DNA of 19,775 nucleotides from an uncultured Chlorobiota bacterium (GTDB lineage: Bacteria; Bacteroidota; Ignavibacteria; UBA10030; UBA6906). The translations under genes were made by a program, and so were the position numbers. The stretch lies in contig CAADGV010000039.1 in assembly GCA_900696645.1 (NCBI GenBank), positions 1 to 19,775 of the forward strand. Direction: 5' to 3'. This document shows, one piece after another, positions 122 through 11,591 of this stretch. The notes under the pieces were generated by a model. It was given only the letters and a program-made list of their open reading frames with translations. It did not search any database and was not told where the DNA came from. The first letter of the stretch is position 1; each line of letters opens with the position of its first letter.

Positions 122-2014
122 TTATTTAGCAACAATGAGTTTCATCGCTTTGAAATAGCTCCCAGCTCTCATCGTGTAGAAATACACTCCCGTCGACAAG
201 GTTGAAGCATTAACTTCCTTCACGTATGAACCTACTTCAAGGAATTCATCCATTATGGTTGAGACTTCTTTGCCGAGAACATCAAAGATCCGCAACGTGA
301 CGTGGCTCGCTTTGCCGATATCAAAACTGATTTTCGTTACAGGATTGAAGGGATTGGGAAAGTTGCCAAGCAATTTTGTTTCGGTTGGAAGGCTCTTTTC
401 ATCAGTTCGTGATGACAATTTCAGGAATTCACCCCTGATCTCCTTCTTGTTCGAGGGCACAGAGAACAAGACGCTTCCGCCATACGCGATCTTCGTGACG
501 ATGCGATAGCTGAAAATGTCGCTGAAATATGAAATGAGAATTTCCTCATCCTTGTACGAACTGGCTGAAGAAGAGAGCGTTGCAATGTCTGCGTACGCCG
601 TATCGTACATCCACTTTCTTTGCACAATGTAGTTCAATGAGCCCAGGTTAAATACGCCTGACGAGTCCAAGAAGGTATTGGCAGTCCAAGTCAGGAGAGG
701 GTATCCACCATCGTTGAGAATGGAGTCGAGTGTAACAGTCGCAACAACATTCTTGAGTGCTTTATATGCATCTATCCTTCCAGCTCCTGTTCCCGACTGA
801 GAAATCGGATTGCAACTGAGGGGGCTGATAAAGATACGCCGTAAACTCTCAATTGAAATATGAGGGTTGAAGCTTCGCATGAGTGCTGCCACACCACCAG
901 CCACCGGTGCCGCGTATGATGAGCCGCCATACAAGGCTGGCGCTGACAACTTGACCCCGCTCCCCGTTGTCGTTCCAACGTAATTGTTGGAATCAACATT
1001 TGCTACGGAGACACCATATCCACTCTGGTATATCGGGCCAGGAACATTATTCCCGGCAGCATTGACGAATAAGACACCGTGCGCGAAGGCCGTATCAATG
1101 AAGGGTTGCCAAAAAGTAGGGTTAAATGCAAATGCATATACGAAAACTCGCGCGCCATTGTCCACGGCATAAGCAAGGCTATTCCAGTGGGAAGAGGGAA
1201 GACCCATGATTCGGCACTTTGGGGCAACCCCTACTCCACAGTTAGTTGAAACACAAGAATCAATCGCGGACGCCGCATGGGAAGCCATGGGCGTTCCATG
1301 CCACCACAACGGGTCACCGGGTAGCAAGCAAGAGTTTTCAATATCAGGGTCGTTGCAATTGAAATTCCATCCATGAATATCATCGATGAACCCATTATTG
1401 TCATCATCAATTCCGTTATTGGGAATCTCACCCCAATTCGTCCAGAGATTGGAAGCAACATCTGCCGAAAAATACTGGTTGTTTGGTTCAGTCAAACACT
1501 TTATCCCACCTCCGCAAATTGCAATAACCACACTGGTATCTCCAAGTGTCCATTCCCACGCTTCGGGGCCATTCACATCCGCTTTGTCCGTTCCTTGGTG
1601 AACATACCACATTTGGTCGTTAGCAAACTTCGCATCGTTCGGGTAGTATGGCCCGAGCAACTCCGGGGTTTCGTCTGGTACAGGTAATGCCCATTGCACA
1701 AACTCATTTGCCTCGTACGACTCTTTGAGGCTTTCCAAATCCGCGCGCTCATCAAAGAACAGCGTGAAAAATTTGCGAAAGGGGCTGCCAGCTTTGTACG
1801 ACATCGGATACATTGCGATAAGCTCACTGTTCTGATTCAGTTCGACTAAAGAAGATGCTTTCTCATTATCGAGAGTTGCAGAGCCATCTTCTTCGATTAC
1901 CATTCCGTCAAGTGCCTCTTCGGTCAAGCAGACGGCCAGCTTTACCGGGTTTGACTGTGCTGACGCCTGAACGACACTCACGAATACAAATAAGACTACA
2001 AGCATTTGTTTCAT
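122..2014 (-). CDS. Secreted S8 (subtilisin-like) peptidase homologue with T9SS C-terminal sorting domain; catalytic Asp apparently lost
   Basis: 630 aa. A signal peptide (about residues 1-20, ending ASAQ) is followed by a variable N-terminal region, a subtilase fold (about 130-425) and a C-terminal sorting domain (about 548-630: NFPNPFNP, then LRIFDVLGKEV and STGVYFY). The last is typical of type IX secretion cargo, so the product is expected to cross the outer membrane and be attached or released. Visible subtilase landmarks are His239 in HGT, oxyanion Asn322 in AAGN and nucleophile Ser366 in GSSYAAP. A Ca-binding-like Asp/Asn-rich loop lies at 199-217 (NGIDDDNNGFIDD). The strand that normally ends in D-T/S-G reads VVIAICGGG, placing Gly168 where the catalytic Asp should be. 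Protease activity is therefore doubtful; it may act as a binding protein or use another acid. The ATG has a GAGGTG ribosome site 5 nt upstream. It stands alone behind a 533-nt structured leader region. The 121 nt after the stop show no clear gene or terminator. Confidence 0.9.
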   Translation of the reverse strand: MKQMLVVLFVFVSVVQASAQSNPVKLAVCLTEEALDGMVIEEDGSATLDNEKASSLVELNQNSELIAMYPMSYKAGSPFRKFFTLFFDERADLESLKESYEANEFVQWALPVPDETPELLGPYYPNDAKFANDQMWYVHQGTDKADVNGPEAWEWTLGDTSVVIAICGGGIKCLTEPNNQYFSADVASNLWTNWGEIPNNGIDDDNNGFIDDIHGWNFNCNDPDIENSCLLPGDPLWWHGTPMASHAASAIDSCVSTNCGVGVAPKCRIMGLPSSHWNSLAYAVDNGARVFVYAFAFNPTFWQPFIDTAFAHGVLFVNAAGNNVPGPIYQSGYGVSVANVDSNNYVGTTTGSGVKLSAPALYGGSSYAAPVAGGVAALMRSFNPHISIESLRRIFISPLSCNPISQSGTGAGRIDAYKALKNVVATVTLDSILNDGGYPLLTWTANTFLDSSGVFNLGSLNYIVQRKWMYDTAYADIATLSSSASSYKDEEILISYFSDIFSYRIVTKIAYGGSVLFSVPSNKKEIRGEFLKLSSRTDEKSLPTETKLLGNFPNPFNPVTKISFDIGKASHVTLRIFDVLGKEVSTIMDEFLEVGSYVKEVNASTLSTGVYFYTMRAGSYFKAMKLIVAK

Positions 2015-2082
2015 AACAACACCTCATACCGTTGTTGTTGAAGGAAACTGTGATTTACGCTAGAATGAAATTGCGGTTTCAT
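2011..2082 (-). other. Possible 23-aa leader ORF overlapping the peptidase start (ATGA)
   Basis: An ATG at 2082 opens a 23-codon frame (begins MKPQFHSSV, ends YEVLL). Its TGA overlaps the peptidase ATG by 4 nt, the arrangement expected for translational coupling. The same frame is open upstream as far as a TAG at 2107-2109, and before that lies a very strong Shine-Dalgarno sequence (2129-2140). The ATG itself has only a poor ribosome site (AGGG, 2 nt away). There is no homology signal I recognise, and the start overlaps a perfect hairpin (2063-2084). A chance frame is quite possible. Confidence 0.2.
2038..2066 (+). promoter_or_regulatory. Plus-strand sigma70-like promoter (TTGAAG-17-TAGAAT)
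   Basis: TTGAAG at 2038-2043 and TAGAAT at 2061-2066 are separated by exactly 17 nt, matching the housekeeping consensus at 4/6 and 5/6 positions. The expected transcription start is near 2073. No plus-strand protein gene follows, but a structured stretch and an intrinsic terminator do (2159-2250). It is read here as the possible promoter of a small RNA. Confidence 0.4.
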
Positions 2083-2084
2083 TC
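2063..2084. repeat. Perfect 8-bp inverted repeat
   Basis: gaatgaaa (2063-2070) and tttcattc (2077-2084) pair perfectly around a 6-nt loop. It overlaps the -10 of the plus-strand promoter candidate and lies about 50 nt before the peptidase start on the minus strand. It could be an operator or an mRNA hairpin. Confidence 0.5.
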
Positions 2085-2128
2085 CCTGTTGACCGACTTC
2101 CTGCTTCTACCACTGTCTTTTGATTTCC

Positions 2129-2140
2129 TCACCTCCTTTC
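2129..2140 (-). promoter_or_regulatory. Unusually strong Shine-Dalgarno sequence without a proper ORF
   Basis: On the minus strand this reads gaaaggaggtga, complementary over 12 nt to the 16S tail. At ideal distance (4 nt after it) comes ATC, then codons for KRQW and a TAG. No ATG, GTG or TTG is suitably placed. This suggests either a decayed or non-canonical leader peptide, or that the sequence is really an anti-SD-like element of a plus-strand RNA. Confidence 0.4.
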
Positions 2141-2213
2141 AGTACATTGCTATTGCCGACAACAGAACTCCTTTTTAGGAGAAGGCTCATACCTTCTGTT
2201 GTAGGCGTAATAC

Positions 2214-2250
2214 CCGCGTCGGGCATTGCGGTGCCCGGCGCGGCTTTTTT
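2214..2250 (+). terminator. Strong plus-strand intrinsic terminator
   Basis: A 12-bp GC-rich stem (2214-2225 with 2232-2243, one G-U pair, 6-nt loop ttgcgg) is followed by C and six T (2245-2250). Read on the minus strand it is a stable hairpin preceded by A6, so it is not a terminator for the peptidase transcript. There is no plus-strand protein gene for it to serve. Confidence 0.7.
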
Positions 2251-2488: not shown

Positions 2489-2517
2489 AAGATACACCAG
2501 GGACAGAAATATGTCAA
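2489..2517 (-). promoter_or_regulatory. Minus-strand promoter toward the S8 peptidase (TTGACA-17-TATCTT)
   Basis: A perfect TTGACA (2517-2512) is followed after 17 nt by TATCTT (2494-2489, 4/6). It lies just downstream of rnc and points at the peptidase. It would give a leader of about 470 nt. A perfect 7-bp inverted repeat (tcaaact/agtttga, 2432-2438 with 2468-2474) falls at the start of the predicted transcript. Confidence 0.45.
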
Positions 2518-7236: not shown

Positions 7237-8243
7237 CAGCCTTTAGCGTCCTCCGCAGACCATTTGATGAGGGCAGAACCCCACGTGTATCCTGCGCCGA
7301 ATGTTGCAATTACAAGTATCTGGTCTTTCTTCAATTTTCCCGCTTGCCACCATTCGGATAAGCAAAGCGGAACAGTTGCTGCGGTGGTGTTTCCGTATTT
7401 GTCGATGTTAATCATGACTTTGGATTTGTCGAGCTCCATCCGCTCGGCTGTCGCGTCAATGATGCGAAGGTTAGCCTGATGGGGTACAAGCCAATCAACA
7501 TCGGCGCCGGTTAAGTTGTTTCGCTTCAGGATTTCCACTGAAACATCGGCCATGCCCATCACGGCGACTTTGAATACACTTTTCCCGTCTTGATAGAGAT
7601 AATGCCAGCGTTTGTCCACCGTTTCGTGGGATGGTGGATTCAAACTGCCGCCCCCCTTCATATGAAGGGCGCCGCCGCCGGAGCCGTCGCAACGCAAAAT
7701 GGAATCAAGAATACCAACGGACATATCGTCTGTCGGTTCGAGCAACACGGCACCCGCGCCATCGCCGAACAGAATGCAATTATTGCGGTCGGAGTAGTCG
7801 GTAATCACGCTCATTTTGTCGGCGCCGATCACCAGCACTTTCTTGTACGCGCCGGTTTCAACAAACTGTGCCCCTGTCATAAGGGCAAACAAAAATCCCG
7901 AGCATGCGGCTGACACATCGAATCCCCACGCGTTCTTGGCGCCGAGTTTGTCCTGAACAAGACACGCCGTTGACGGAAAGAACATATCGGGAGTGATTGT
8001 TGCCATGACAATCAGATCGACCTCATCGGGCCGGATGCCTCTGTTCTTCAGGGCGTTCTTTGCCGCCTCGACCGCCATATCGGACGTAGCGCCGTTTTCG
8101 AGAATGTGTCGTTCACGTATTCCTGTTCGTGTACGAATCCATTCATCGGTTGTATCCACCATCTTCTCCAAATCGAAATTGGAGAGAATCTTGTCGGGCA
8201 CGTAATGTCCGACTGCGGTTATTATTGCTCGTCTCTTTTGCAT
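7236..8243 (-). CDS. fabH: Beta-ketoacyl-ACP synthase III
   Basis: 335 aa. It starts fatty acid synthesis by condensing an acyl-CoA primer with malonyl-ACP. The catalytic triad is Cys114 (SAACSGF), His255 (VPHQANLRI) and Asn285 (KYGNTTAAT), the Cys-His-Asn set that marks KAS III. The N-terminal DEWIRTRTGIRERH is characteristic. Its start overlaps the plsX stop by one base (TAATG), and its stop overlaps the fabD start by one base, giving a coupled plsX-fabH-fabD block. Primer preference (acetyl or branched) cannot be read from the sequence. Confidence 0.97.
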   Translation of the reverse strand: MQKRRAIITAVGHYVPDKILSNFDLEKMVDTTDEWIRTRTGIRERHILENGATSDMAVEAAKNALKNRGIRPDEVDLIVMATITPDMFFPSTACLVQDKLGAKNAWGFDVSAACSGFLFALMTGAQFVETGAYKKVLVIGADKMSVITDYSDRNNCILFGDGAGAVLLEPTDDMSVGILDSILRCDGSGGGALHMKGGGSLNPPSHETVDKRWHYLYQDGKSVFKVAVMGMADVSVEILKRNNLTGADVDWLVPHQANLRIIDATAERMELDKSKVMINIDKYGNTTAATVPLCLSEWWQAGKLKKDQILVIATFGAGYTWGSALIKWSAEDAKG

Positions 8244-10532: not shown

Positions 10533-10562
10533 AGGATGTGATTGTCGTGAGATATTTTTGTT

Positions 10563-11591
10563 TCAGAAACTTACTTCGTAACGGGCAGCATACTTGCCGG
10601 AGAAGGTAACAGCATTGTCGGGCAGCTTTTTCCGGCTGGAAAACACATTTTTCAGCAGATAGCCGCTCCATTCTATCCGTTTGCAGAAGGCGTCATACGA
10701 TTCATTCTGCCAGTCAAAATCCTTTCGCCACACAACTTGGGGGGAGATGTAGCGTTTCACTGCCTCAAGAATGACGGTGTTTTCATTCGTTTGTTCGTAT
10801 GAAGGATCTGCGGTATTTGCGAGCAGTGTAATGTTACGGCGCTTGCACTCTGCCGCAAGTCCGCTGACAATTGACCTGTATGTTTCGATTTCAGAGCCGC
10901 CCAGCGGTGTCCGGAACGCCCCGCCGATATCCATTACCGGGCGGACCTGCAATGTCTTGATGCTGTATTTTCCGAACACATCAAAGAAGCCGCGAAGCTC
11001 TTCAAGATTTTCCGCGTTGACCGTGTAGTTCACACGAAGATTCGGAGTTGAGACGTTGGCAGCCTTCTTCATGGCGTCGAGCCGTTCCAGCACATTAATG
11101 AACTTCTCGAACGATGCGTTCACCATGAAGCGTTCGTACGTTTCCTTCTGAACGCCGTGCACCGAAAGCGCCAGTTCATCCAGCCCGTACCCGACCAACT
11201 GTGAAAGATGCTCATCCGTAAAGAGCATGCCGTTTGACGTGAAGCCGACAAACGGGATGTTGTACGATTTTCCCAGCCGGATGATTTCCGTAAAATCCTT
11301 GTAGAGAGTCGGTTCCGTTCCGCAGCCGATAACGAGTTGCAGGGTTTTCGGGAACAACAGTCCGGCTATGCGTTCGATTTCCTCTTTTTTGAAAATGCCT
11401 TTGGCAGTTTTGCGGTATTCCTCATCGCTGAAATAGCACATTGTGCAGCGAAGATTGCATGCCATAACGGGATCGAACCGCAGGAACAAATGCCGCATCT
11501 TCAATGTGTGTGCAGCCAGCACCGAGAGGAACTTCACGCGGTGGCTGCGAACCAACCGGTTGAGCTTGATAAGTTTATAGATTCGATCCAA
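10563..11591 (-). CDS. Radical SAM protein
   Basis: 342 aa. The iron-sulfur site is CNLRCTMC (Cys45, Cys49, Cys52), preceded by LRFDPVMA. GCGTEPT (90-95) stands where the SAM-binding GGEP motif normally lies. The rest fits a radical SAM partial TIM barrel. There is no clear SPASM cysteine cluster at the C-terminus and no signal peptide. The start appears to be TTG at 11591 with a weak GGGG ribosome site. The next ATG (residue 32) would remove an N-terminal helix that looks coding. It lies 26 nt after the PorZ-like gene. The substrate is not evident; a peptide or carbohydrate modification role would be a guess. Confidence 0.85.
   Translation of the reverse strand: MDRIYKLIKLNRLVRSHRVKFLSVLAAHTLKMRHLFLRFDPVMACNLRCTMCYFSDEEYRKTAKGIFKKEEIERIAGLLFPKTLQLVIGCGTEPTLYKDFTEIIRLGKSYNIPFVGFTSNGMLFTDEHLSQLVGYGLDELALSVHGVQKETYERFMVNASFEKFINVLERLDAMKKAANVSTPNLRVNYTVNAENLEELRGFFDVFGKYSIKTLQVRPVMDIGGAFRTPLGGSEIETYRSIVSGLAAECKRRNITLLANTADPSYEQTNENTVILEAVKRYISPQVVWRKDFDWQNESYDAFCKRIEWSGYLLKNVFSSRKKLPDNAVTFSGKYAARYEVSF

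What the first reader, a model, noticed from the sequence alone, without database searches (positions are those of the whole stretch)
2038..2250. Candidate new small RNA with three-way junction and intrinsic terminator, antisense to a peptidase leader
On the plus strand, where no protein gene exists, there is a full transcription unit layout. It has TTGAAG-17-TAGAAT (2038-2066), a compact three-way junction in which nearly every base from 2159 to 2202 is assigned, and a 12-bp GC-rich hairpin with T6 (2214-2250). The promoter, fold and terminator are each suggestive, and their order and spacing fit an RNA of about 178 nt. It would be complementary to the leader of the S8 peptidase mRNA, so antisense control is a natural idea.
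Basis: partly seen in the sequence, partly recalled or inferred. Interest (0 to 1): 0.6.

Follow-up and report, generated by a model that had tools for sequence, protein, structure and literature searches.

The report
Candidate small RNA beside peptidase gene
The sequence between two bacterial genes carries a very convincing transcription stop signal and a folded segment that together look like an ordinary, species-specific small regulatory RNA gene, but nothing related was found in any relative, so neither its expression nor its function is shown.

Summary
TTGAAG-17-TAGAAT is at 2038-2066, a three-way junction at 2155-2206 and a 13-bp terminator hairpin plus T6 at 2214-2250. The parts are not equally strong. 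The terminator is excellent: -26 kcal/mol, fourth strongest on either strand of 420 kb of this genome. Hairpins of this class (-18 kcal/mol or better) number 15 there against about 0.2 expected by chance, none inside a gene. The junction is significant (z about -4; -5.8 with the terminator) but folds equally well on both strands. The promoter is weak: 9/12, about a 10% chance per 150 nt. A weaker 8/12 promoter (2120-2148) would start the RNA exactly at the junction, giving about 96 nt instead of about 178.

No copy was found in genus, family or order, none convincing in the class sample, and there is no Rfam match, so covariation cannot be tested. The peptidase is also orphan, and the sister genome lacks both at this site. 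Plus-strand small ORFs look non-coding.

Best reading: a lineage-specific intergenic sRNA, complementary to the S8-peptidase leader if the only minus-strand promoter found (2517-2489) is used. An anti-Shine-Dalgarno stretch (2130-2140) suggests a trans seed, with weak support. Ordinary kind, unproven.

The parts
2038..2066 (+). candidate promoter P1, TTGAAG-17-TAGAAT (9/12)
   Evidence: sites of 9/12 or better are about twofold enriched upstream of genes in this genome
2120..2148 (+). alternative promoter P2, TTGATT-17-TACATT (8/12); would start the RNA at about 2155
   Evidence: sites of 8/12 are not enriched upstream of genes
2073..2154 (+). pyrimidine-rich 5' part of the RNA if P1 is used, unstructured (z +0.16)
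2130..2140 (+). CACCTCCTTTC, identical to the 3' tail of the genome's own 16S rRNA (anti-Shine-Dalgarno); possible seed
2155..2206 (+). three-way junction: closing stem 2155-2157/2204-2206, stem 2159-2166/2195-2202, two inner hairpins
   Evidence: folds on both strands
2214..2250 (+). intrinsic terminator: 13-bp hairpin 2214-2243, C, T6
2489..2517 (-). TTGACA-17-TATCTT (10/12), likely promoter of the S8 peptidase mRNA; leader of about 467 nt complementary to the sRNA
122..2014 (-). S8 peptidase with Por_Secre_tail sorting domain

Best explanation
The + strand between about 2067 and 2250 is a lineage-specific intergenic small RNA gene: a sigma-70-type promoter, an unstructured 5' stretch (if P1 is used), a stable three-way junction, and an intrinsic terminator that stops transcription about 300 bp before rnc. 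Its most likely actions are base-pairing with the mRNA of the oppositely transcribed S8 peptidase, whose putative long leader is its perfect complement, and/or pairing of its anti-Shine-Dalgarno stretch with ribosome binding sites in trans. Shown here: the elements, the strength and orientation of the terminator, and the lack of coding signal. Inferred: that it is transcribed, which start site is used, and both targets.
For: Terminator class with 15 seen against about 0.2 expected and none inside genes; this one ranks fourth and is + oriented. It has no same-strand protein gene upstream. The 62 nt before it are the most significantly folded among the 24 strongest terminators sampled; 2155-2250 has z -5.83. 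Sigma-70-type promoters are enriched upstream of genes in this genome and two candidates precede the RNA. The anti-SD piece pairs with translation start regions better than shuffles, 6 of 200 as good. B. [quoted passage not shown]
Against: No expression data. No homologue in any genome searched, so no selection on the structure can be shown. P1 is chance-level by itself. The junction folds as well on the minus strand. The anti-SD signal is weak and lies outside the RNA if P2 is the start.
Confidence: 0.55

Rival explanations
1. Only the terminator is functional: a left-over of a deleted + strand gene, or a stop for stray antisense transcription heading towards rnc. The upstream fold is incidental and there is no dedicated RNA.
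For: The region is recently rearranged: the sister genome has different DNA after rnc and the peptidase is an orphan. The promoters are weak.
Against: The block directly before the terminator is unusually structured. No trace of a + strand gene was recognised, though no similarity search of + strand fragments against a protein database was made.
Confidence: 0.25
2. The structures belong to the minus strand: they are part of the ~467-nt leader of the S8 peptidase mRNA and act there as a cis element or mRNA stabiliser.
For: TTGACA-17-TATCTT at 2517-2489 is the only minus-strand promoter-like site found in the region and is 10/12. The junction folds as well on - (z -4.20).
Against: The T6 tail and the two G-U pairs of the terminator fit + only; on - the hairpin has A-C mismatches and no T tract. 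The strong SD-like AAAGGAGGTG on - has no start codon (ATG, GTG or TTG) at a usual distance (sequence).
Confidence: 0.12
3. The + strand encodes a small protein, for example the 37-codon ORF 2065-2178, ended by the terminator.
For: Two other strong terminators without an ORF of 100 aa or more close upstream follow short ORFs (read by eye). This ORF ends 35 nt before the hairpin.
Against: Codon usage is like intergenic sequence (score -2.84, in the lowest 3% of gene pieces). With P1 the ATG would overlap the -10 box. No relatives by DNA search.
Confidence: 0.05

Closest known systems
GibS and other intergenic sRNAs of Bacteroides thetaiotaomicron (PMC7366714)
   Same: Intergenic, about 100-200 nt, single-stranded 5' part, structured 3' part, intrinsic terminator; many such sRNAs are strain-specific.
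   Different: No sequence relationship was tested or is implied; GibS has mapped ends and targets and is conserved in its genus, while this candidate has neither. Promoter type differs: the Bacteroidota type (TTTG/TAnnTTTG) was not found in the sample here.
sRNAs with anti-Shine-Dalgarno seeds such as AbcR1 (named in PMC6234868)
   Same: A C/U-rich single-stranded stretch complementary to Shine-Dalgarno sequences.
   Different: Seed use here is inferred, with weak statistics, and lies outside the RNA if P2 is the start.
cis-antisense RNAs
   Same: Complementary to the putative leader of the neighbouring peptidase mRNA.
   Different: Does not cover the start codon or ribosome binding site of the peptidase; the leader itself is inferred.

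Membership tests
intergenic sRNA with own promoter and intrinsic terminator | intrinsic terminator in the right orientation | tested here: met
intergenic sRNA with own promoter and intrinsic terminator | promoter / transcription start | tested here: inconclusive
   two weak sites, 9/12 and 8/12
intergenic sRNA with own promoter and intrinsic terminator | no coding capacity | tested here: met
intergenic sRNA with own promoter and intrinsic terminator | discrete transcript | not testable with these tools
   needs RNA-seq or a Northern blot
cis-antisense regulator of the S8 peptidase | target mRNA extends over the antisense region | tested here: inconclusive
   only minus-strand promoter-like site found lies upstream, at 2517-2489; no transcript data
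any Rfam family | score above the gathering threshold | tested here: not met
conserved structured RNA | homologues with covarying stems | tested here: not met
   no homologues found, so covariation could not be examined

The most novel reading that the evidence does not exclude
A young sRNA that carries a copy of the 16S anti-Shine-Dalgarno tail as its seed and represses, as a group, those mRNAs of this species that have strong Shine-Dalgarno sequences, a minority in a genome where such sequences are sparse before genes.
Probability: 0.07. Interest if true: 0.5.

Novelty: new member of a known kind. Interest (0 to 1): 0.25.

Why it matters
It would also illustrate how a new sRNA gene can arise next to a newly gained secreted peptidase gene. 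By itself it is an ordinary candidate.

Tried and rejected
Rfam at gathering and permissive thresholds: nothing. tRNA/tmRNA: none. Repeat or mobile element: single copy in its genome, and no plasmid or phage match for the whole intergenic region. Covariance model R1 in family, order and class: the two non-self hits at E <= 0.01 (L114, L115) match mainly or only through the GC-rich terminator hairpin and were rejected. Orthologous intergenic region after rnc in relatives: no similarity. S8-peptidase orthologues with a conserved leader: none at E <= 1e-25 in the order, only a 25%-identical relative in GTDB contigs. Bulk target prediction with the whole 82-nt 5' part gave no signal. A second orphan sRNA candidate was searched for as a comparison and is also single-copy, so it does not serve as a positive control for the homologue search.

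Full report
WHAT IS THERE. The window is the whole of contig C39 of the genome. Bases 2015-2547 lie between rnc (3339-2548, minus strand; RNase III) and an S8 peptidase with a Por_Secre_tail sorting domain (2014-122, minus strand).

HOW STRONG EACH PART IS. I calibrated on 400 kb of the same genome plus the window. Hairpins of -18 kcal/mol or better with a T tract number 15. None lies inside the ORFs of 100 aa or more that cover 89% of the DNA, 10 follow a same-strand gene within 150 nt, and about 0.2 are expected from shuffled DNA (6 in 22.3 Mb). So this genome uses intrinsic terminators, and false ones of this strength are rare. The one at 2214-2250 ranks fourth by energy. It is oriented to the plus strand by its T6 and by two G-U pairs that are A-C mismatches on the other strand. 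There is no plus-strand protein gene for it: ORFs of 37-48 codons have the codon usage of intergenic DNA.

The junction is a significant fold (z -3.95), but so is its minus-strand version (z -4.20), since it contains no G-U pair. Junction plus terminator (2155-2250) has z -5.83, and the 62 nt before this terminator are the most significantly folded among the 24 strongest terminators sampled; about 6% of random intergenic 62-mers reach z -3.5.

Promoters: TTGACA/TATAAT-type sites of 9/12 or better are about twofold enriched upstream of genes in this genome, 36 against 19-21; the Bacteroidota type was not found in the sample. A 9/12 site occurs in about 10% of random 150-nt stretches, so P1 is weak support. 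A second site, TTGATT-17-TACATT at 2120-2148 (8/12), would place the start at about 2155, the first base of the closing stem, giving a fully folded RNA of about 96 nt. Sites at 8/12 are not enriched at all, so neither start is established. The 82 nt between the two starts are unstructured (z +0.16).

RELATIVES. Nothing related was found: blastn in 60 genomes including its own, permissive blastn in 19 genomes of the family, a covariance model in 21 family, 98 order and 391 class genomes (the two weak outside hits match mainly or only in the terminator stem), plasmids, phages, and an exact 23-base piece in viral contigs. In the sister genome G001, whose RNase III is 94% identical, rnc is followed by an unrelated stretch and an isopentenyl-diphosphate isomerase-like gene (named from the sequence by eye), without peptidase or RNA. 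The peptidase's catalytic part has no relative at E <= 1e-25 in the order. The RNA and the peptidase are therefore restricted to this lineage as far as the held genomes show, and covariation cannot be used for or against the fold. In Bacteroides thetaiotaomicron 27 of 49 high-confidence sRNAs were strain-specific (PMC7366714), so lack of conservation does not by itself speak against an sRNA.

HOW IT COULD WORK. Cis: the only minus-strand promoter-like site of 8/12 or better found in the intergenic region is TTGACA-17-TATCTT at 2517-2489; sites of 10/12 or better are enriched about three- to fourfold upstream of genes (10 against about 3). If it is used, the peptidase mRNA has a leader of about 467 nt that is complementary to the entire sRNA, and the two promoters face each other. 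The RNA would not cover the peptidase start codon. Trans: 2130-2140 is identical to the 3' tail of the genome's own 16S rRNA. Bases 2121-2146 pair with translation start regions of 339 genes somewhat better than shuffled versions (57 against 41 +/- 7.5 at -14 kcal/mol; 6 of 200 shuffles as good; 2 of 200 relative to control windows inside genes). Any anti-Shine-Dalgarno-like stretch would do this, so it is weak support. The whole 5' part shows no signal. If the RNA starts at 2155, this stretch is only promoter spacer.

VERDICT. A lineage-specific intergenic sRNA is the most likely reading (0.55). The antisense idea is possible and unproven. It is a new member of a known kind, of modest interest.

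Noticed in passing
L110:7790-7945 (G000:C7:127790-127945, + strand): A second orphan sRNA candidate in the same genome: TTGACA-17-TACATT followed by a ~110-nt RNA with three hairpins ending in a 16-bp terminator; fold z -7.0. No Rfam match at gathering score and no copy in 20 relatives.
   Followed up: partly
L109 near 10533-10600 (G000:C7, minus strand) and L110 near 7870-7930: The DNA before two of the strongest terminators is similar: CTCGGTCGTTCGATAACAAGAAGCCGAG and CTCGGTCGTCCAATAACACGGAGCCGAG; possibly a shared terminator or antiterminator arrangement.
   Followed up: no
G000:C33:38014-38350, minus strand (L095): A short ORF encoding near-identical tandem repeats (around KSGVMNIPDPPRP) directly before a strong terminator.
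   Followed up: no
window 122-2014: The S8 peptidase is an orphan: its C-terminal sorting domain is widespread in relatives, but the catalytic part has no close relative in the order or in GTDB contigs.
   Followed up: partly
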